From positions 1-44,925 of the forward strand of contig DVJQ01000012.1 of NCBI GenBank assembly GCA_018716625.1: a stretch of DNA of 44,925 nt. Direction: 5' to 3'. Below the pieces are notes generated by a model. That model did no database searches and was not told where the DNA came from. It worked only from the letters and a program-made list of their open reading frames with translations. The position numbers and the translations under genes are program-made. Below are positions 5,253 through 43,732 of the stretch, piece by piece. How positions within the stretch are numbered: position 1 is the first letter of the stretch; each line of letters begins with the position of its first letter. The stretch is from Candidatus Galligastranaerophilus intestinavium. GTDB lineage: Bacteria; Cyanobacteriota; Vampirovibrionia; Gastranaerophilales; Gastranaerophilaceae.

Positions 5253-5711
5253 ATGGTTGATTCAATTAATGACTCAATATATTCACAAAACCTTATGGGG
5301 GCTTATTCGATTGGCAGTTACTCTCAATTGAATAAAACAGATACAGAGGTTTTTGAAGACTCTTTTCAGGATGTTTTGGATAGTGTTGGTGATAAGACTC
5401 AAGAGAATTCTGTGCAAAAAATAGACGAAAGCTCATTGGGCATTCCTTTGGGTATGGAAATAAATGGTATTCAGGAAGTTGAAGAAGTTGCACAAGGTGA
5501 TACTTCTCAATCGGGCGGCAGTGGTTCATCATCACAGGAGGATGATGAAGAATATGATGAAATGGACTTAAATCAAGACGGTACTGTAAGCCCTGCTGAG
5601 ATGATTATTTATGAAATGACCCATGGTGCAACCAAGGATAACAACTCGCAAGTTTCTTCGGCTGATTCTTCGCTTATTAGTGAAGCTATAAGTGCATATA
5701 TGGCAGCTTAG
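5253..5711 (+). CDS. Small EF-hand protein
   Basis: Encodes 152 residues that I do not recognise as a named family. It has one perfect 12-residue EF-hand loop at 105-116 (Asp105, Asn107, Asp109, Gly110, Val112, Glu116), which predicts Ca2+ binding. Before the loop is a Gly/Ser/acidic linker (about 82-104). There is no signal peptide or membrane segment. The open frame extends upstream to 5055 through rpsI and the terminator, but ATG 5253 is the real start because a strong AAGGAGGT site (5241-5248) sits 4 nt before it. It has its own transcription after the terminator. Its stop overlaps that of wecB by 4 nt. One of four EF-hand proteins in this window. Confidence 0.8.
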   Translation: MVDSINDSIYSQNLMGAYSIGSYSQLNKTDTEVFEDSFQDVLDSVGDKTQENSVQKIDESSLGIPLGMEINGIQEVEEVAQGDTSQSGGSGSSSQEDDEEYDEMDLNQDGTVSPAEMIIYEMTHGATKDNNSQVSSADSSLISEAISAYMAA

Positions 5712-12364: not shown

Positions 12365-12919
12365 CTATATTTTAAGATTTTTGCTTTTTGCAAAATTGAT
12401 ATAATTGCTTATTCTGAGGGGTGTATTGTCTTGGCTTTTCCTGAATAAAGGCTGGTAGTTAAAGTTATAAGTCGGCATTGCGTCTTGAATTTTCTGTTTA
12501 AACGCTTTTCTTTGCGCCACAGTGCCAAGTTTATTTCTTATCATGGGAGTTAAAATATTTGTGGAAACAATACCACCAACAAATGATGCCAAGACGGCGG
12601 CACCGCCTTTTAGGCTTTTAAATTCGGCACTGTTTTTGTCTACGTTCCTAAATGATATTACCCCTTTGTCAATGAGTTTATCTGTCATATTCATTAGTGG
12701 CGCAGTTATTATCGCATAAAGACCTATGTTTGAAAGTCCGTCAAAAACCTCTTGAGGTACTAGGAATTTCTTATCTTCCTTGTCAATTTTTTTATTTGTC
12801 ATTATGCCAAATGTTTGTGCGGCACTTGCGAGAAACCAACCTATTGCTGCATTTATAAATAAGAATTTTCCGTTATCATTAGCAAAATTTGCAACTGTTT
12901 TTTGAATAAAATTAGCCAT
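12365..12919 (-). CDS. Hypothetical membrane protein, paralogue of upstream gene
   Basis: Encodes 184 residues of unknown function. Hydrophobic segments lie at about 18-40 (FLFINAAIGWFLASAAQTFG), 64-80 and 107-130. The motifs TFG followed by a NK-IDKEDKK stretch, and APLMNMT, recur in the upstream gene (TFG, NKEVDKDTRK, APLTNLT), so the two look like related copies. The frame is open up to 12967, but ATG 12919 is preferred: it has GAGG 7-10 nt upstream and overlaps the upstream stop by 8 nt, implying translational coupling. The C-terminal third (about 130-184) is basic and soluble-looking. Confidence 0.65.
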   Translation of the reverse strand: MANFIQKTVANFANDNGKFLFINAAIGWFLASAAQTFGIMTNKKIDKEDKKFLVPQEVFDGLSNIGLYAIITAPLMNMTDKLIDKGVISFRNVDKNSAEFKSLKGGAAVLASFVGGIVSTNILTPMIRNKLGTVAQRKAFKQKIQDAMPTYNFNYQPLFRKSQDNTPLRISNYINFAKSKNLKI

Positions 12920-13493
12920 TTTTCGCCTCGTTATTTTCTTTTTCTTCATTGCCAAGGTTGGGCACAAGTTTGTCTAATTTTTCCATTGTTAAATTTGTAA
13001 GAGGCGCGTCTACCAAAAAGTTTGTAAATATCATAACTCCAAGTGCCACAAGCGAACCTATGACAGAGGGAGTCCTTTTTATTGCGTCGGACAATTTGCC
13101 ATCATCCAGTTTTAAAGAGTCAAAACCTTTCTTAAACGTCCTGTATATTTTTTGCTCATCAAGGATTTTTCCTCCGCTGCCTTTTTTACTAAAAGCAAGC
13201 TCAGCACCTTTAATCGTAGCTGTCCGTACCACAAGACCTGTAGCCGTCCCGATAATAGCTTTTGCTGCACTTCTCAGTGCGGATATTTTCCTTGTATCTT
13301 TGTCAACCTCTTTGTTTCTGAGGTCTATAGCAGGCTGTACAATCAATCCGAAGGTTCCAAGGATTAGTTTTTGATGTACACTGGAAAAGTTGTCGGCACT
13401 TTTTAAAACTTTTTGTACATTAGTACCTAAAGGTTTTAATTTTATTGCGCCAAAATTTAATGTGTTGTTGTTGCCTTGTACTTTTTTTATCAT
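12912..13493 (-). CDS. Hypothetical membrane-associated protein with NFGA motif
   Basis: Encodes 193 residues of unknown function. The N terminus (MIKKVQGNNNTLNFGAIKL) has no signal peptide but carries an NFGA motif reminiscent of the VSFTSR segment in the RelA/SpoT-like protein of this window. Hydrophobic stretches are about 43-57, 72-92 and 140-165; the last ends with DAPLTNLTMEKLDKLVP, similar to the ITAPLMNMTDKLIDKG of the next gene. The two genes overlap by 8 nt and form an operon. No clear ribosome-binding site precedes the ATG at 13493. They could make a small membrane complex, which is inference only. Confidence 0.62.
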   Translation of the reverse strand: MIKKVQGNNNTLNFGAIKLKPLGTNVQKVLKSADNFSSVHQKLILGTFGLIVQPAIDLRNKEVDKDTRKISALRSAAKAIIGTATGLVVRTATIKGAELAFSKKGSGGKILDEQKIYRTFKKGFDSLKLDDGKLSDAIKRTPSVIGSLVALGVMIFTNFLVDAPLTNLTMEKLDKLVPNLGNEEKENNEAKNG

Positions 13494-32343: not shown

Positions 32344-32886
32344 ATGCAACTTACAGGTGGGCAATATAAAGGAAGAAAAATAATTACTCCAAAGGGTGTA
32401 CGTCCGACACTAAGCAATGTTCGCGAGAGCGTTTTTAGTGTTTTATATTCATACTTTGGCAGTTTTGAGGACAAAAATTTTCTGGATTTATTTTTAGGAA
32501 GCGGGATTATGACTTTTGAGGCTCTTTCTCGCGGGTTTAAAACTGTTTCGTTTGAACTAAGCGCTCAAGTTATAAGGCAGGTAAAAGACAGTGCCTTTGC
32601 CTTGGGTATAGAGCCTACCATAATAAAGGCAAATTCTTTGTGTGCAGCACCTAAGCTGAGTTCTAAATTTGACGTAATTTATGCTGATCCGCCTTGGGAC
32701 TATTCTTATTATGACATTTTTAAATGTTGTGAAAAACTGCTTTTAAAAAAATCTTTGGCAGTAATTGAATGTGACAAAAAGAAAAAGCCCGATGTGCTTT
32801 TAGAGCTGAACTCTTTTGACACACTTGAGCTTTTTAGGGAAAAAAATTATGGTCGTTGTTGTCTTTTATTTATAAAATTAAGTTGA
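32344..32886 (+). CDS. rsmD: 16S rRNA (guanine966-N2)-methyltransferase RsmD
   Basis: Encodes 180 residues. Conserved RsmD features are GGQYKGRKIITPKG at the start, RPTLSNVRESVFSVL (20-34), the SAM-binding FLDLFLGSGIMTFEALSRG (46-64), and catalytic DPPWDY (115-120). It methylates G966 of 16S rRNA in the small-subunit head. No ribosome-binding site is visible in the 12 or so nt after the likely TATAAT (32320-32325). It ends overlapping the convergent EF-hand gene by 9 nt. coaD, a frequent neighbour, is absent. Confidence 0.92.
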   Translation: MQLTGGQYKGRKIITPKGVRPTLSNVRESVFSVLYSYFGSFEDKNFLDLFLGSGIMTFEALSRGFKTVSFELSAQVIRQVKDSAFALGIEPTIIKANSLCAAPKLSSKFDVIYADPPWDYSYYDIFKCCEKLLLKKSLAVIECDKKKKPDVLLELNSFDTLELFREKNYGRCCLLFIKLS

Positions 32887-33390
32887 TGAACTAGACGAGT
32901 AGTCGTCATTTTCTACATAATTTGAAATATTTGTTGCCTGAAATTTCGGATATTTTTCTTCCATTTCATCTATTTCTTCATCCATACCATAAGCGGCTAT
33001 TTCTTGGTTTGTAACTCTGCCGTCACCGTCTTTGTCAATTTCTTGGAAATTAGCCAAAACTTCCTCAAGAGTTGAGCTTGCACTTCCGCTGTAGCACAGC
33101 TGCATTAACTCCTGATAGCTCAATCCTTTTTGGGATAATTTATTTGTGTATTGCTGCAAATCCGTTGCACTTATTTTTCCGTCACCGTCAGTGTCAATGC
33201 TTGAAAAATTTTGTGTCAGATAACTTTGAAAGCTTGCGTTTAAGTTATTTTTATTAACTTCATCCGACGGATTTACAATTTGATCAAGGGTTAAACCGCC
33301 TGATGCACCTGCGCTTAGTACCGCAAAATTATTTGTAAGACCGTAAATAGCTTGCGCCATAAGTCCTTGACCGCTTAATCTTGTACTCAT
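32878..33390 (-). CDS. Two-EF-hand protein
   Basis: Encodes 170 residues with a true pair of EF hands. Loop 1 (66-77) has Asp66, Asp68, Asp70, Gly71, Ile73 and Asp77; loop 2 (119-130) has Asp119, Asp121, Asp123, Gly124, Val126 and Glu130. Helices flank both loops, as in calmodulin-like units. The N terminus (MSTRLSGQGLMAQAIYGLTN) is mildly hydrophobic but is not a signal peptide. The C terminus is acidic and ends in a run of serines. AAGGTTAG precedes the ATG. Function unknown; Ca2+ binding is strongly predicted. Confidence 0.82.
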   Translation of the reverse strand: MSTRLSGQGLMAQAIYGLTNNFAVLSAGASGGLTLDQIVNPSDEVNKNNLNASFQSYLTQNFSSIDTDGDGKISATDLQQYTNKLSQKGLSYQELMQLCYSGSASSTLEEVLANFQEIDKDGDGRVTNQEIAAYGMDEEIDEMEEKYPKFQATNISNYVENDDYSSSSST

Positions 33391-33469
33391 AATCTAACCT
33401 TATTTTATAACCTAAGACAAATTTAATGATTTTTTTATAAAAAGAAAACAACTTTTTGGATGAGTTTGC

Positions 33470-33498
33470 TTGTTTTGAATTGCAATTGGTTGTAGAAT
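33470..33498 (+). promoter_or_regulatory. Candidate promoter of the zinc-ribbon gene, predicted leaderless
   Basis: TTGTTT (33470-33475), 17-nt spacer, TAGAAT (33493-33498), then 6 nt to the ATG at 33505. The expected transcription start coincides with the A of the ATG. No ribosome-binding site is present. The -35 is the same hexamer as in front of wecB. Confidence 0.5.
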
Positions 33499-33504
33499 TA
33501 CACT

Positions 33505-33681
33505 ATGGCTGAAAAAAGACAGTTTTTGGGAATAATGTTTGAATGCTGTAATGTATACGGCAGAATATATAAAAATAAAGAGGGCACTGCCTATGTAGGT
33601 AAATGCCCGAAATGTTTAAAAAATGTTATGGTCAAAGTAGGTAAAGAAGGAACAAATAACAGATTTTTCAGAGCTTATTAG
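33505..33681 (+). CDS. Small CPxC zinc-ribbon-like protein
   Basis: A 58-residue gene found by reading the gap between two EF-hand genes. The sequence runs FLGIMFECCNVYGRIYKNKE (7-26), then AYVGKCPKCLKNVMVKVG and ends TNNRFFRAY. Cys14/Cys15 and Cys34/Cys37 make a four-cysteine zinc ribbon. From memory, similar short proteins with the ECC-VY-RIY and CPKC blocks occur in Planctomycetes and other groups without known function; a search is needed to confirm. It has a promoter-like element ending 6 nt before the ATG and a 4-nt stop overlap with the convergent EF-hand gene. Confidence 0.75.
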   Translation: MAEKRQFLGIMFECCNVYGRIYKNKEGTAYVGKCPKCLKNVMVKVGKEGTNNRFFRAY

Positions 33682-34400
33682 TATAAATCTTTTGCCCCGC
33701 TTTCATTTGTTGTACTGCCACCGTTTTCACTGCGTTTTTTGTTAATTAAATTAAGTTCGTTTTCGCTGTAGAATTGTATTTTGCCGTTTTCATCTTTTAT
33801 TATTTGATTGTTTTCGTCGCGTTTCATTTCAGGAAGCATTACTTCTCCCCATACGACATTTGGATTTTTAATATTGTTAATACGACATATTTCATCCAGA
33901 TATTGTTGATAGTCGCTGCTATATAGCTCTATACCCTCAACATGTTTGTCTATTATCCTTGATAAGCAGTCGTCCACTCCTGTTCCCCAAGGTTGGATTT
34001 TTACTTTTTCATAAGGTGAATCGTTTGATTTTTCTTCATCAGCCGACTCGGCTTCTTGTGCACCGTCATATATTGCACCCAAAAGTGATGTTACTTCTTT
34101 TTCATTCAGCACACCATCACCCTTATCAGCGTCTGCTAATCTTGCAAAGACTTCAGTTTCATCTTCTTCTAAGTAACCTTTTTCAATAGCATCTTGCATG
34201 AATTCGTCGAGGTCTATCTCGTCTTTTCCTTGCATGATTTTTTCTTCGTAATATTCTATGAAATTTTCCCTGCTTGCAAATACGCTTTCATCATTGTGTG
34301 CTTTTTCATTTTCAATTACTTCTGCTGCTCTTTGGTTGAAAATATCTTTGTCTACTTTTACGCCTGCCAGTCTGGCATCATAGTTGAATTCTGATGTCAT
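33678..34400 (-). CDS. EF-hand protein with LysM-like C-terminal half
   Basis: Encodes 240 residues. The N-terminal half is acidic and helical, with an EF-like loop at 90-102 (Asp90, Asp92, Asp95, Gly96, Glu102) that is one residue longer than canonical. A second acidic stretch, GKDEIDLDEF (58-67), may be a degenerate partner. Residues about 137-192 (DDCLSRIIDKH, INNIKNPNVVWGEVMLPEM) resemble a LysM unit, usually peptidoglycan- or chitin-binding. There is no signal peptide, so surface location is not shown. AAAGGAAA precedes the ATG. It is the second gene of an operon with another EF-hand gene 26 nt upstream. Confidence 0.7.
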   Translation of the reverse strand: MTSEFNYDARLAGVKVDKDIFNQRAAEVIENEKAHNDESVFASRENFIEYYEEKIMQGKDEIDLDEFMQDAIEKGYLEEDETEVFARLADADKGDGVLNEKEVTSLLGAIYDGAQEAESADEEKSNDSPYEKVKIQPWGTGVDDCLSRIIDKHVEGIELYSSDYQQYLDEICRINNIKNPNVVWGEVMLPEMKRDENNQIIKDENGKIQFYSENELNLINKKRSENGGSTTNESGAKDLY

Positions 34401-34426
34401 TTTTTTGTTTTCCTTTATTTATATTT

Positions 34427-34840
34427 TTAAAACGGATTATTGTTTGTGTCGGCTGAAAAGTCCATGTCGTCGTTTTCATCAGATGTTAAACTTGCCCCAT
34501 TGTTGCTTTTTTCGTTTCTGTGTAAATTAAATTGTCCGAGTGTTTCATCTATTTCATCTTGTGTTACTATACCGTCGCCATCTATATCAAAATCATCACC
34601 TATTTCTCGCATGGTTTCATCGTCAATGCCATAGTCCGCAAATGCACCTTCGGTAAACTCAATCGTTGAAACGCTTTCATCATCAAATATGTTGTCAGGT
34701 TCAATATCGCTCAAGTCCATATTTGTGATATCAAATATGCTGGAATCTTCATTGTTTTCAGCTTTTTCCTGTTTTGCAGACTTTGCTTTTTCGATTTGTG
34801 AAGGGTCTATTCTTCGAATTTCGTTAATATTGCTGCCCAT
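34427..34840 (-). CDS. Acidic single-EF-hand protein
   Basis: Encodes 137 residues from ATG 34840; the frame is open back to 34933 but AAAGGA lies about 9 nt before 34840, and the upstream part is promoter-like. One perfect EF-hand loop sits at 85-96 (Asp85, Asp87, Asp89, Gly90, Val92, Glu96). The protein is very acidic, poor in hydrophobic residues and has no signal peptide or membrane helix; the C-terminal 30 residues are Asn/Asp/Ser-rich. It is the first gene of the pair with the EF-hand/LysM-like gene. Confidence 0.75.
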   Translation of the reverse strand: MGSNINEIRRIDPSQIEKAKSAKQEKAENNEDSSIFDITNMDLSDIEPDNIFDDESVSTIEFTEGAFADYGIDDETMREIGDDFDIDGDGIVTQDEIDETLGQFNLHRNEKSNNGASLTSDENDDMDFSADTNNNPF

Positions 34841-34982: not shown

Positions 34983-36419
34983 TTAGTTTAGTTCTTGTTC
35001 CAAGCTGTATGCGGCTCTTAAAATGGTTGCTTCGTCAAGGTTTTTGCCGATTATCTGCAAGCCTATCGGCATTTTTTCGCTGTCAAAACCGCAAGGAGTG
35101 CTGAGTGCAGGTGCGCCAATTAAGTTTGCGCTAATTGTTGCAATATCCGTCAGATACATCGCAAGCGGGTCTTCGTTTCTTGAGCCTATATCAAAAGCAG
35201 TTGTGGGACAAGTTGGGGAAATTAAAATATCAACATCATCAAAAGCTTTGTCAAAATCATTCTTTACAAGCCTTCTTAACTGTTGAGCTTTTTTGTAATA
35301 AGCATCGTAGTAACCGCTTGAAAGTGCATATGTACCAAGCATTATACGTCTTTTTACTTCATCTCCGAAACCTTCTGCGCGTGTTTTTGTGTACATTTCA
35401 AGAAGGTTTTGTGCATCTTTTGTTCTGTAGCCGTATTTTACCCCGTCATATCTTGCTAAGTTTGAACTTGCTTCTGCGGTCGCTACTATGTAGTAGATAC
35501 CTATTGAATACTTTAAAAGCGGCAGAGAAATTTCTTTTATTGTTGCGCCGAGCTTTTTATATGTTTCAATAGCATCTTCAACGGATTTTCTGACATCATC
35601 ATTTACACCTTCGCCCAGAAGTTCTTTAATAACACCGATTTTAAGTCCCCCAACGCCGTCTTTTAGAGTTTTTGTAACATCGTCAACTTCTAATTTTAGT
35701 GATGTAGAGTCTTTTTCATCCCATCCGGCTATTGCCATATAAAGATTTGCAATATCTTCGACACTTCTGCCAAAGGGTCCGATTTGATCCAATGATGACG
35801 CAAAAGCAATCAAACCGTAACGGGAAACTCTGCCGTATGTGGGTTTAAAGCCGTTTATACCGCAAAAACTTGCAGGTAGTCTTATGCTGCCGCCTGTATC
35901 GGAACCAAGTGAAACTGTTGCCTCATAAGCTGCAACTGACGCTGCTGAACCACCAGAGGAGCCTCCTGGGACTTTGTTTAAGTTATGAGGGTTTCTTACG
36001 ATTTTGAATGCGGAATTTTCGTTACTAGAGCCCATTGCAAACTCGTCCAAATTTGCTTTACCTACTATTGGCACAAGATTTTCTTTTAATTTTTTTGTAA
36101 CAGTGGCATCATAGGGTGATACAAAATTTTCAAGAATTTTAGAACTTGCGGTTGTTTTTGAGCCAATCATGTTCATATTATCTTTAAGTGCAAGCGGAAT
36201 ACCTGCCATAATAGGCAAATCTTCGCCTTTTGCAATCTTTTCATCAACTTTTTTAGCTGTTTCAAGCGCCTGTTCTTTTGTAAGCGAATTATATGCGCCA
36301 ATCTTTTCGTCAAGATTTTCTATTTGTTTATATGTTTCATTAACTAACTCAACAGCGCTTATTTCTTTGTTTAAAAGCGCTTTTCTCTGTTCGGTTGCTG
36401 ATTTTTTAAGTAATTCCAT
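34983..36419 (-). CDS. gatA: Asp-tRNA(Asn)/Glu-tRNA(Gln) amidotransferase subunit A
   Basis: Encodes 478 residues. GatA is the amidase that releases ammonia from glutamine and feeds GatB, which amidates mischarged Glu-tRNA(Gln) or Asp-tRNA(Asn). The amidase-signature triad is Lys79 (GIPLALKDN), cis-Ser154 (PGGSSGGSAAS) and nucleophile Ser178 (GSDTGGSIRLPASFCG). FKPTYGRVSRYGLIAFASS follows, as in GatA. It implies the indirect route to Gln-tRNA. gatB and gatC are not adjacent, which is common in cyanobacteria-like genomes. GGAG lies 10 nt before the ATG. It is divergent from yraN across 39 nt. Confidence 0.96.
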   Translation of the reverse strand: MELLKKSATEQRKALLNKEISAVELVNETYKQIENLDEKIGAYNSLTKEQALETAKKVDEKIAKGEDLPIMAGIPLALKDNMNMIGSKTTASSKILENFVSPYDATVTKKLKENLVPIVGKANLDEFAMGSSNENSAFKIVRNPHNLNKVPGGSSGGSAASVAAYEATVSLGSDTGGSIRLPASFCGINGFKPTYGRVSRYGLIAFASSLDQIGPFGRSVEDIANLYMAIAGWDEKDSTSLKLEVDDVTKTLKDGVGGLKIGVIKELLGEGVNDDVRKSVEDAIETYKKLGATIKEISLPLLKYSIGIYYIVATAEASSNLARYDGVKYGYRTKDAQNLLEMYTKTRAEGFGDEVKRRIMLGTYALSSGYYDAYYKKAQQLRRLVKNDFDKAFDDVDILISPTCPTTAFDIGSRNEDPLAMYLTDIATISANLIGAPALSTPCGFDSEKMPIGLQIIGKNLDEATILRAAYSLEQELN

Positions 36420-36803: not shown

Positions 36804-36855
36804 CAAAATATTTTTTTTTCATGTTTTGTATCCTTTGTCTGTTAATGGGAATTTA

Positions 36856-38025
36856 ATGATGCTGAAATTGTTAAACTTTTTAAACACTTCAAATAATGTA
36901 GTAAAAAGCAAAAGCATTTATAATAATGCTTTATACAATAACTTTAATTTACCAAAGTTAAATATACTTGATAAGGACTGTGTTTCTTTTACTTCAAGGG
37001 CTAAAGAAAAGAAACAAGATACATCGGACACTGTAAAAACTACTGCCGTTGGCAGCTCAAGTGCGGATTCAAAGACTTTAAAAGACAAAAAACGAACAAT
37101 TACAAATAAGCTTGCACAAAATATTAGTGCAATGACAGATGCTCACACAAGAGAATTAAAGTATACAGTTGGAAAATGTTTGTCACATCTTGTTCAAAAT
37201 CCTGATTTACCTTGTAACTATGAACACCCGATATACAGGCTGGAATTTCGTACAAAGGGCGCAAATTCAATAAGGGAAAAGGCAAGTCAAAAACACCTTA
37301 CATCTAAGGAAGGTGTTATAGGTAATTTGCACGATCTTGCAGGTGCAAGAATTATTATGGGTACGCGCGCAAACGGCTCTGTAGAAAAAGTTTTGGACGA
37401 GCTTTCAAAAAGTGTAAAAGACGGTAAACTAAAAATCGTGGAAGTTGAAAACCATATTCCAACAGATACAAAATATCAATATGTTAGTCAGGCAAAGTTG
37501 AGAAAACTTGCTCAAATTTCATCTGACAGATTTTCTATAATGGTACCTGAAAGAATTACAAGAAATGAAACGGGCTATACTGCAATACATATGCTGGTTG
37601 AATTCAATGACGGAATAACTGGGGAAATTCAAATATTAGGTAAGGACGTTGCACTCTTTAAAGAACTTGAAGATATTTCATATAAAGTATTGCGTGCAAA
37701 AAGTGTTGCTCCAAAATATTCCGAAATAGTAGATATATTAAAACCGCTTGTTCCTGTCGGAACAGATATGTCTACGCCTGAAAACATTGCAAGGGCTAAA
37801 TTGAGAAAAGAATTTATTGCATATACTACAGCGGCATATAAACATGAGCGCGAAAAAGAAGGTGTTGCATCTAAGATGAACACTGTGCCCAAGTTTTTAA
37901 CACTGGATGAATTTTCGCGTACCCAAAGGGGTAAAATTCATTTGACCAGAGATATGGATTTTAATAATCTCTATGAATTAAAGACAAAAGCTGATGGTAT
38001 GATTTTAAGCCGTTTGCCAAAATAA
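36856..38025 (+). CDS. Stand-alone RelA/SpoT-fold protein
   Basis: Encodes 389 residues from ATG 36856 (GGGAATTT upstream; ATG 36859 and an upstream TTG at 36826 are alternatives). Residues about 125-285 match the RelA/SpoT nucleotidyltransferase fold: RLEFRTKGANSIREKA (128-143), NLHDLAGARIIM (157-168) with Asp160, ETGYTAIHMLVEF (238-250) with Tyr241 and His245, and GEIQILGKD (256-264) with Glu257. A roughly 35-residue insertion lies between blocks two and three. There is no HD hydrolase, TGS or ACT domain. The first 100 residues are low-complexity with VSFTSR at 43-48; the last 100 are basic and helical. It probably makes or transfers a pyrophosphate, but substrate is unknown. Confidence 0.75.
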   Translation: MMLKLLNFLNTSNNVVKSKSIYNNALYNNFNLPKLNILDKDCVSFTSRAKEKKQDTSDTVKTTAVGSSSADSKTLKDKKRTITNKLAQNISAMTDAHTRELKYTVGKCLSHLVQNPDLPCNYEHPIYRLEFRTKGANSIREKASQKHLTSKEGVIGNLHDLAGARIIMGTRANGSVEKVLDELSKSVKDGKLKIVEVENHIPTDTKYQYVSQAKLRKLAQISSDRFSIMVPERITRNETGYTAIHMLVEFNDGITGEIQILGKDVALFKELEDISYKVLRAKSVAPKYSEIVDILKPLVPVGTDMSTPENIARAKLRKEFIAYTTAAYKHEREKEGVASKMNTVPKFLTLDEFSRTQRGKIHLTRDMDFNNLYELKTKADGMILSRLPK

Positions 38026-41027: not shown

Positions 41028-41399
41028 TTATGCTACACAGCTAATACTTGTGGAACATCCTGCTGACATGCCTGCACTAGATCCTATTGCAGCGCCACCA
41101 CAAAATGCATCACCTGAAAAGCTGTTATTTAAACTTGCCATGGTGCCTGTTGTCTCAACACTATCTGTGTATGCCATGGTACCTGTTGTTTCAACGTAGT
41201 TTTCTTGTTCATTTGCTATTGTTTGGGTATTTGTGTTGTTATATTCTTCACTGTAAGTGTTTGTATTTTCTTGTACTGATTGACTATTTTGAAATAAACT
41301 CGGTTGTGATTTTGACTTTTGTAGCGACTGCATTGCTTTTGGACTAATATTGCCGTCTTTATTTCCTAATATTAGGCTTGCACTTGCGCTCAGACTCAT
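41028..41399 (-). CDS. Hypothetical protein with Ser/Gly/Cys-rich tail
   Basis: Encodes 123 residues, no known family. Residues 12-22 (GNKDGNISPKA) look like a degraded EF-hand half-loop and resemble the loop of the protein at 5253-5711 (NQDGTVSPAE). The middle is Asn/Gln/Thr/Glu-rich and disordered. Two copies of VETTGTMA occur 12 residues apart (69-76, 81-88). The last 28 residues are Gly, Ala, Ser and Cys (Cys100, Cys115, Cys121; FCGGAAIGSSAGMSAGCS). AAGGAG precedes the ATG. No signal peptide. Possibly cell-surface or precursor-peptide-like, but no maturation enzyme is next to it. Confidence 0.6.
   Translation of the reverse strand: MSLSASASLILGNKDGNISPKAMQSLQKSKSQPSLFQNSQSVQENTNTYSEEYNNTNTQTIANEQENYVETTGTMAYTDSVETTGTMASLNNSFSGDAFCGGAAIGSSAGMSAGCSTSISCVA
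41137..41195. repeat. Tandem 36-nt-period direct repeat inside a coding region
   Basis: Two 23-nt copies (41137-41159 and 41173-41195), differing at two positions, lie 36 nt apart within the hypothetical gene at 41028-41399. They encode the two VETTGTMA units. This looks like a recent in-frame duplication of 12 codons. Confidence 0.8.
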
Positions 41400-41460: not shown

Positions 41461-41490
41461 AAAAAGTATATATTTCAATATATACTTTTT
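41461..41490 (-). terminator. Candidate AT-rich terminator of the flavin reductase gene
   Basis: A perfect 12-bp inverted repeat, AAAAAGTATATA (41461-41472) and TATATACTTTTT (41479-41490), with a 6-nt loop. It lies between the flavin reductase stop (41519) and the next minus-strand gene. It has only one GC pair, so termination would be weak. Confidence 0.45.
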
Positions 41491-42198: not shown

Positions 42199-43632
42199 TT
42201 ACGGATTATAATTTTTTAGAATTTCATTTTTTGATATTATTCCGCTGTCAAAGAGCATTTGAACCTGTGCTATATTGTATCTGATTATTGAGTTAACAAG
42301 TTCTACTCTTGTTTTTGTTTTAAATGTTTGTGCTTGAATTACGTCGATTAATATACCTTCGCCTGCATCCAACCTTAATTCTGCAAGCTTTACACTCTGT
42401 GTTGCATATTGTACCTGTTCTTTTGATATAGCAATTCTGTCTTGCGATATTTTAGATTCGTAATAATCTTTCAAAATGCTCTCTTTTATATCCCTTAGTG
42501 ATTGTTCCAAGTCTATAATTGTTTTGTCTATTTGTGCCTGTTTTGTTTTTGCTTGTGTTATTGTTCCAGCCCCCATGTTTTGCCCCAAGTTCCAATCGGC
42601 ATACACGCCTAAAACAATAGCAGGACCCATTCCTACTTTTGCCGTACCTTGCCACTGTTCTTGTGCAATAATTCTTGGCCTTGGTACAAACTGAGTGTAT
42701 ATCATCCTTTTTTCTTCTTTTAATGCTTGGATTTGTGAGCGTATTTTTTTTACATCCTCTCTGCTAAGGCAAGCAGTATTGTACAAATCCTCTATTGTTT
42801 TTTCTTTGTCTATTAACATATACTCCTGTGCTTCAAGTTCTACAGGCATAAGACTTGAGGTAATTTCAACGCCCATAATGTTTGCAAGCCTTGCTTGAGA
42901 GAGTCTGAACTCTTGCAGCGCATCCAAAAGATTTTGTTTTGCTTGTGCAAGTTCGGTTTTAGAGCGTATTACGTCAAACTTTGTTCCAAGTCCCGCCTGC
43001 ATGAGATTTTCGGTTTGCAACAGTTGTACGCATCTTTCTTTGTAATTTTTTTGATAAATTTCTATATTAAGTTTTGCTCTTAAAAGCTCATAATAGTATT
43101 TTGTTGTATATAGTAAAACTTCGCTTCTTGTATATTCAAGATTGTGTCTTTGTGCAAATTTCAGATTTTTCTTCATTCTTGCTTCAAATATTTGCTCACC
43201 TCCTTTTGTTAATTGGTGCGCACCTCTTACATATACTGACAGTGCAAGTTCGTTGAAATTTTCAAGTAATGCTGCACCGACGAGAACTTGTCCGCTGTAA
43301 TATACCGAGTAATTACTTACCGACAAATCAGGTAAAAAATTTGTAAGAGAGTTTTTATATTCCCAGCTTGACCTTATGTAGTCAAAGTTTGCACTTTTCA
43401 GATAAAAATTGTATAAGAGAGCTATTTCAAGACATTCTTTTAAATTTATGTATGTTGAATCTTCTCCAAGATAACTTTTTACTTCATCTTCAATGTTAAT
43501 GTCTTCCAAGCACTGCGCAAATCCTGTTGCAAGGTTTATCTCATCCCCGATTTGCTCCTCTTTGCAATAACAAATGTTTGTCGCACTTAGGATTATAAAT
43601 ATTATAAAAAGCGCAATTATACCTTTTTTCAT
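42199..43632 (-). CDS. TolC-family outer-membrane channel protein
   Basis: Encodes 477 residues from ATG 43632. The start MKKGIIALFIIFIILSATNI is a signal peptide, so the longer TTG start at 43650 is unlikely. Long helices with heptad patterns dominate and two OEP repeats are seen (about 60-250 and 280-470); YEARLR-like repeats include ELRLDAGEGILIDVIQAQTF and ENLMQAGLGTKFDVIRSKTE, the twin 'LDAGxGxxxDV' signatures of TolC. TolC trimers span the outer membrane and periplasm for type I export or drug efflux. No pump genes lie beside it. No ribosome-binding site is visible. Confidence 0.88.
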   Translation of the reverse strand: MKKGIIALFIIFIILSATNICYCKEEQIGDEINLATGFAQCLEDINIEDEVKSYLGEDSTYINLKECLEIALLYNFYLKSANFDYIRSSWEYKNSLTNFLPDLSVSNYSVYYSGQVLVGAALLENFNELALSVYVRGAHQLTKGGEQIFEARMKKNLKFAQRHNLEYTRSEVLLYTTKYYYELLRAKLNIEIYQKNYKERCVQLLQTENLMQAGLGTKFDVIRSKTELAQAKQNLLDALQEFRLSQARLANIMGVEITSSLMPVELEAQEYMLIDKEKTIEDLYNTACLSREDVKKIRSQIQALKEEKRMIYTQFVPRPRIIAQEQWQGTAKVGMGPAIVLGVYADWNLGQNMGAGTITQAKTKQAQIDKTIIDLEQSLRDIKESILKDYYESKISQDRIAISKEQVQYATQSVKLAELRLDAGEGILIDVIQAQTFKTKTRVELVNSIIRYNIAQVQMLFDSGIISKNEILKNYNP

Positions 43633-43732
43633 ATTAAAAAGATTAATCAAATTTTGCGCAAAAAATAATAAGCTTTATGGGCTAATACTTTTGTGATAAA
43701 TTATTTTTGTAGTTAATAATTTAGAGGGCAAA

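What the first reader, a model, noticed from the sequence alone, without database searches (positions are those of the whole stretch)
32878..34840. Cluster of signal-less EF-hand proteins around a zinc-ribbon gene
Three genes within 2 kb encode EF-hand proteins (loops at 85-96, 90-102, and 66-77 plus 119-130 of each product) and a fourth is at 5253-5711, with a degraded relative at 41028-41399. Canonical EF hands are rare in most bacteria; so many in 45 kb of one genome suggests an expanded calcium-binding family. None has a signal peptide, so either they sense cytoplasmic Ca2+ or they leave by a dedicated route.
Basis: partly seen in the sequence, partly recalled or inferred. Interest (0 to 1): 0.6.

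Follow-up and report, generated by a model that had tools for sequence, protein, structure and literature searches.

The report
Conserved signal-less calcium-binding EF-hand protein
An uncultured group of gut bacteria related to cyanobacteria carries, in almost every genome, one small calcium-binding protein with no export signal and perfectly kept calcium sites; the idea that it leaves the cell through a flagellum-derived secretion machine is plausible but unproven.

Summary
The EF-hand loops are real at the stated coordinates, but the cluster is not one family. ORF A (32878-33390, -) is the solid part: two canonical EF hands plus two degenerate ones. It was found in 34 of 39 sampled Gastranaerophilales genomes, nearly always as one copy, and full length in 95 of 97 Gastranaerophilaceae, but in no sampled genome of other orders of the class. 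Ligand positions of both loops are canonical in 50 of 50 aligned homologues; dN/dS is about 0.02. ORF B has a 13-residue non-canonical loop and a LysM-like C-terminus. ORF C was found only here and in the nearest sampled relative. The 41 kb 'relative' has no EF loop. EF-hand content is moderately raised in the family (median 4 hits per genome, this genome 5) but not special to this genome. Signal-less EF-hand proteins elsewhere in the lineage carry LysM or CHAP-like wall domains, so some probably leave the cytoplasm. A possible route is a second, flagellum-independent type III apparatus: 74 of 97 family genomes keep its gate without flagellar FlhA. Linkage to EF-hand genes was seen in one genus only. 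Export with Ca2+-driven folding outside is my leading model (0.4); a cytoplasmic Ca2+ sensor or buffer is close behind (0.35).

The parts
32878..33390 (-). ORF A: 170-aa EF-hand protein, canonical loops at residues 66-77 and 119-130, degenerate EF-like elements near 27-40 and 84-98, disordered tail with a conserved motif
   Evidence: Pfam EF-hand_7 4.6e-11; order-wide conservation; ligands canonical in 50/50 and dN/dS about 0.02; AlphaFold mean pLDDT 81
33505..33681 (+). 58-aa zinc-ribbon-like gene, divergent from ORF A
   Evidence: weak Pfam Zn_ribbon_Top1 0.011; conserved beside ORF A in the genus at 75-88% identity
33678..34400 (-). ORF B: 240 aa, 13-residue non-canonical EF-like loop at 90-102, LysM-like C-terminal domain (about residues 130-200)
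   Evidence: no Pfam hit; profile matches solved LysM domains Ecp6 5.5e-6 and SafA 5e-4; mostly restricted to the genus
34427..34840 (-). ORF C: 137 aa from ATG 34840, one canonical EF loop at 85-96
   Evidence: loop pattern, Pfam 0.026; among fetched loci only in this genome and G010
5253..5711 (+). ORF D: 152 aa, one canonical EF loop at 105-116; unrelated to A-C apart from the loop
   Evidence: loop pattern, Pfam EF-hand_5 0.011

Best explanation
ORF A is a core Ca2+-binding protein of Candidatus Gastranaerophilales with two canonical and two degenerate EF hands. SHOWN: its Ca2+ ligands and sequence are under strong purifying selection, it has no recognisable signal peptide, and other proteins of the lineage join EF hands to LysM or CHAP-like wall domains, also without a signal peptide. 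INFERRED: the signal-less EF-hand proteins are passengers of a flagellar-type type III export apparatus, most likely the second one (FliE/FliF/FliH/FlhA2 and FliM-N/O/P/Q/R), which every sampled genome of the order keeps even when the flagellum is lost. In the cytosol, at low Ca2+, the EF hands would stay flexible and export-competent; in the periplasm or gut lumen Ca2+ would lock the fold and keep the protein outside.
For: Ligand positions canonical in 50/50 homologues, dN/dS about 0.02; order-wide presence; no signal peptide; signal-less LysM+EF-hand proteins L137 and L136 with Pfam LysM above cut-off starting at residue 3, and CHAP-like+EF-hand L130; second FlhA/FliP set in 39/39 order genomes, flagellin absent from seven of them, and 74 of 97 family genomes with the second gate but not the flagellar one; a signal-less SLT transglycosylase lies beside FliE of that apparatus; in G034 two EF-hand genes, one with LysM, lie about 200 bp from the fliR2 operon; precedent for type III-secreted proteins that fold on Ca2+ (PMC6506597).
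Against: No direct evidence of export of ORF A. Linkage of EF-hand/LysM genes to the apparatus was seen only in one genus (G029, G034) and not in G000, G014, G015, G019, G020, G021 or G028. ORF A is not near the apparatus in any locus read. Two family genomes without ORF A (G158, G197) keep the second gate. ORF A carries no wall or adhesion domain.
Confidence: 0.4

Rival explanations
1. ORF A is a cytoplasmic Ca2+ sensor or buffer, comparable in role to calmodulin or calerythrin: Ca2+ entry changes the EF-hand pairs and the conserved tail motif binds a partner.
For: Four EF-like elements, two of them canonical; closest sequence and fold neighbours are calmodulin-like, though the fold matches are weak; a conserved MSxFY-type motif in a disordered tail, 76 of 80 homologues; nearly always one copy per genome.
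Against: No partner, enzyme domain or conserved operon found; signal-less EF-hand proteins of the same lineage carry wall domains.
Confidence: 0.35
2. Signal-less EF-hand proteins leave by another route: an ABC exporter with a TolC-type outer membrane channel, or lysis.
For: The EF-hand/CHAP-like gene follows MacA/MacB-like ABC exporter genes on one strand with a TolC-like gene opposite, in G000, G010 and G006; TolC-like gene in the window at 42199-43650.
Against: In G007 a TerC-like gene separates the exporter from the EF-hand gene; to my knowledge MacAB-type pumps take substrates from the periplasm; no exporter lies near ORF A.
Confidence: 0.15
3. The cluster is an accident: ORF A is one conserved gene and B, C and D are unrelated, partly lineage-specific genes that each carry an EF-like loop, with no common role.
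For: A, B, C and D share no visible similarity beyond the loop; B is genus-level and patchy, C was found in two genomes; B's loop is non-canonical here; the neighbourhood of A is not conserved outside the genus.
Against: Four canonical loops in the window against 0.09 expected, three of them within 2 kb; EF hands recur throughout the lineage.
Confidence: 0.1

Closest known systems
Calmodulin-like EF-hand proteins, including bacterial calerythrin, CabB/CabC, CasA and EfhP (named in PMC4053335)
   Same: ORF A has EF-hand pairs with canonical loops; its profile matches calmodulins and amoebic EF-hand Ca2+-binding proteins in the PDB.
   Different: Only two of four EF-like elements are canonical; a conserved disordered tail; found only in one bacterial order in the genomes sampled; Foldseek and VIA-align matches are weak.
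LysM proteins such as SafA and Ecp6
   Same: ORF B's C-terminal domain profile matches their LysM domains; other signal-less EF-hand proteins of the order carry a Pfam-level LysM.
   Different: ORF B's domain opens with WGTGxDDCLSRI rather than a typical LysM start and is joined to an EF-like loop.
Flagellar and non-flagellar type III secretion systems (PMC3459982)
   Same: The second apparatus has FliE, YscJ/FliF, FliH, FliM/N-type, FliP/Q/R and FlhA, with a T3SS ATPase in G034.
   Different: It is kept in genomes without flagellin; no secretin gene was noticed in the loci read, but no genome-wide search for one was made.
Type III-secreted proteins with Ca2+-induced folding (VIC_001052, NopE1/NopE2; PMC6506597)
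   Same: Model for Ca2+-driven structure formation after type III secretion.
   Different: Those use a MIIA domain without a classical Ca2+ motif and autocleave; ORF A has canonical EF hands and no known enzymatic domain.

Membership tests
Canonical EF-hand Ca2+-binding proteins (ORF A) | 12-residue loop with ligands at positions 1, 3, 5 and 12 | tested here: met
   Both loops in ORF A, 50/50 homologues; Pfam above cut-off
Canonical EF-hand Ca2+-binding proteins (ORF A) | Helix-loop-helix fold, usually paired | tested here: met
   AlphaFold model, mean pLDDT 81, helices flank both canonical loops and two degenerate ones
Canonical EF-hand Ca2+-binding proteins (ORF A) | Ca2+ binding | not testable with these tools
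   needs purified protein
Canonical EF-hand proteins (ORF B) | 12-residue canonical loop | tested here: not met
   13-residue loop, no Pfam hit
Calmodulin fold group (ORF A) | Clear structural match to calmodulin-like chains | tested here: inconclusive
   Foldseek best E 0.011, VIA-align best Z 4.9
LysM (ORF B C-terminal domain) | Significant profile match to LysM | tested here: met
   profile of relatives against PDB: Ecp6 5.5e-6, SafA 5e-4; single-sequence Pfam scan negative
Type III secretion substrate (ORF A) | Secretion dependent on a type III apparatus | not testable with these tools
   needs secretion assay; only indirect genomic evidence here
Non-flagellar T3SS as defined in PMC3459982 (second apparatus) | Secretin present and flagellum-specific genes absent | tested here: inconclusive
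   FliE lies beside the gate, and rod-like FlgB/C/F/G genes beside it in G034, which points to a flagellar-type system; secretin was not searched for genome-wide

The most novel reading that the evidence does not exclude
Gastranaerophilales keep a flagellum-independent, flagellar-type type III export apparatus that secretes a set of signal-less wall-active and EF-hand proteins which fold only on meeting Ca2+ outside, with ORF A as a core member of that secretome.
Probability: 0.25. Interest if true: 0.8.

Novelty: new member of a known kind. Interest (0 to 1): 0.45.

Why it matters
ORF A is close to universal in the sampled members of a large uncultured gut lineage, is restricted to that order in the genomes sampled, and keeps its Ca2+ sites without exception, so Ca2+ binding probably matters to these cells in a way not described in the literature I could search. 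[quoted passage not shown] If it exports wall-active and EF-hand proteins it would be a secretion system in common gut commensals.

Tried and rejected
Expanded paralogous EF-hand family: rejected; A-D are unrelated outside the loop and the genome's count is ordinary for its family. 41028-41399 as a degraded EF hand: rejected. Conserved operon around ORF A: not found outside the genus. Sigma-28-like promoters upstream of EF-hand genes: the consensus used was not found, not even before flagellin genes, so uninformative. A TATATA-N-TATATA motif upstream of signal-less genes looked striking, but the reversed-pattern control was as frequent in two of three genomes and depletion of signal-peptide genes among motif genes was not significant (Fisher p = 0.14); kept only as a lead. 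Linkage of EF-hand genes to the second type III apparatus: one genus only, treated as anecdotal. A crude N-terminal composition comparison used too few controls to support a type III signal. Literature: the only paper holding both Melainabacteria and EF-hand was a cyanobacterial proteome map, not opened; no paper held both Vampirovibrionia and secretion system.

Full report
What is there. The window is contig C66 of a 1.76 Mb genome. The fetched relatives of ORF A whose record titles name a lineage are Candidatus Gastranaerophilales, Melainabacteria or cyanobacterium. By my reading of the translations, BamA-type and TolC-type genes in the window mark a diderm. Between rsmD-like 32344-32886 (+) and gatA-like 34983-36419 (-) lie ORF A (170 aa, -), a 58-aa zinc-ribbon-like gene (+), ORF B (240 aa, -) and ORF C (137 aa from the ATG at 34840, -).

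Check of the loops. A strict loop pattern finds four loops in 14,095 aa of window ORFs: A 66-77 and 119-130, C 85-96, and ORF D (5253-5711) 105-116. Residue shuffles give a mean of 0.09 and a maximum of 2. Pfam supports A strongly (EF-hand_7 4.6e-11), C and D only below the curated cut-offs (0.026 and 0.011), and neither B nor 41028-41399. ORF B's loop is 13 residues (90-102); relatives such as L008 keep a canonical 12-residue version. The 41 kb ORF has no loop.

ORF A. A search of 39 genomes of the order finds it in 34, once per genome except one genome with two. A profile search of 194 genomes of the class gives full-length matches (over 100 bits) in 95 of 97 Gastranaerophilaceae-level relatives (family f1) and in G028 of another family of the order, and only short EF-hand-level matches elsewhere. 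In 50 aligned homologues, loop positions 1, 3, 5 and 12 are canonical in both loops without exception; against the nearest sampled relative dN is 0.022 and dS 1.05. AlphaFold (50 sequences) gives mean pLDDT 81, with helix-loop-helix elements at the two canonical loops and two degenerate ones; residues 154-170 are disordered, yet an MSxFY-type motif at the start of that tail is kept in 76 of 80 homologues. Structural neighbours are calmodulin-like but weak; the sequence profile finds amoebic EF-hand proteins and calmodulins. Neighbours of ORF A are conserved only within the genus and its closest relatives.

Signal peptides. In-frame stops lie 2 and 7 codons upstream of A and B. The ORF A family's maximal N-terminal hydropathy (10-residue window) is at most 1.74, against 2.5 to 3.8 for nine proteins of the lineage that look to me like signal-peptide proteins. 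No signal-peptide predictor was available.

Neighbours. The zinc-ribbon gene stays beside ORF A in the genus (75-88% identity). ORF B is in most but not all genomes of the genus, and ORF C was found only in G000 and G010. A profile of ORF B's C-terminal domain and its relatives matches solved LysM domains (Ecp6 5.5e-6, SafA 5e-4).

How many EF hands. With PF13499 at E <= 0.01 this genome has 5 hits (one, at C56, lies in an SNF2 helicase-like protein and is probably false), the family median is 4 (range 1-9, 97 genomes), and other orders of the class run at about 0.85 per Mb against about 2 per Mb in the family; 2 of 14 well-known controls have any. The lineage is moderately rich in EF hands; this genome is not exceptional.

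Is export likely? Elsewhere in the order, EF hands sit in proteins without a signal peptide that carry LysM (L137:3550-4362 and L136:6416-7354, both above the Pfam cut-off, LysM starting at residue 3) or a CHAP-like end (L130, CHAP E = 0.01, below the cut-off). In L137 a stop close before the ATG leaves no room for a signal peptide. Such domains are expected to act on the wall, so at least these proteins should leave the cytoplasm; that is inference from domain function.

A possible route. PF00771 and PF00813 show two FlhA/FliP sets in flagellated genomes and one in the others, and the second set is kept throughout the 39 genomes, with gaps in incomplete ones. Seven genomes have no flagellin and lack the first set. 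In 97 family genomes the best gate match is of the flagellar type in 22 and of the second type in 74; the split is by score, without a gene tree. Around the second gate lie a signal-less SLT transglycosylase, FliE, YscJ/FliF and FliH, with a T3SS ATPase after it in G034; FliM/N-type, FliO-like, FliP, FliQ and FliR genes lie together elsewhere. Soo et al. [quoted passage not shown] I read this set as a separate, retained apparatus; that reading is inference.

The link between the two is weak. In G034 two EF-hand genes, one with LysM, lie about 200 bp from the fliR2 operon, and in the related G029 a LysM match lies about 2 kb from fliP2. In seven other genomes whose coordinates I compared by eye (G000, G014, G015, G019, G020, G021, G028) the listed EF-hand matches are not near it. 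ORF A is not near it in any locus read. A known case of a type III-secreted protein that folds on Ca2+ (PMC6506597) shows that such a mechanism is feasible.

Verdict. ORF A as a real, conserved, order-restricted EF-hand protein: about 0.95. Export of ORF A and the signal-less EF-hand set through a flagellar-type apparatus, with Ca2+-driven folding outside: 0.4. Cytoplasmic sensor or buffer: 0.35. Sequence alone cannot separate the two.

Noticed in passing
L123 5213-11808, L134 5289-8185, L125 583-1362 (own genome C22 and C47); same kind in L126, L127, L128, L135, L136, L138: A second flagellar-type type III apparatus, kept in genomes without flagellin; 74 of 97 family genomes have its gate but not the flagellar one.
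   Followed up: partly
L125 9328-10779 (own genome C47), L173 3585-5072: A soluble 483-495 aa protein matching only the cytoplasmic part of FlhA (Pfam FHIPEP 3.7e-46, positions 321-656), found in most or all of the 39 order genomes.
   Followed up: no
window 41467-41484; L130 2605, L136 4895 and 6369, L137 3473, L171 5159, L172 5203, L177 2909, L200 1312, L206 1509: TATATA-N2..9-TATATA motif 10-100 bp before many signal-less genes (EF-hand/CHAP, LysM/EF, SLT and others); statistics and the reversed-pattern control are not convincing.
   Followed up: partly
L130 1036-4895, L176 3401-8128, L178 3154-7925: A signal-less EF-hand/CHAP-like gene follows MacA/MacB-like ABC exporter genes on the same strand in three genomes of the genus.
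   Followed up: partly
L171 5191-7074, L172 5240-7131: Adjacent signal-less SLT transglycosylase and CHAP-like genes a few kb from a flagellin gene in two genomes of the genus.
   Followed up: no
window 12912-13493 and 36826-38025; L129 2014-3366: Several signal-less proteins share a short N-terminal motif of the type NxxFxG or SFTS; possible targeting signal, judged by eye only.
   Followed up: no
L006 1456-2880 (G007): ORF B homologue extended to 474 aa with repeats that give a weak MORN-like match (E 0.018).
   Followed up: no
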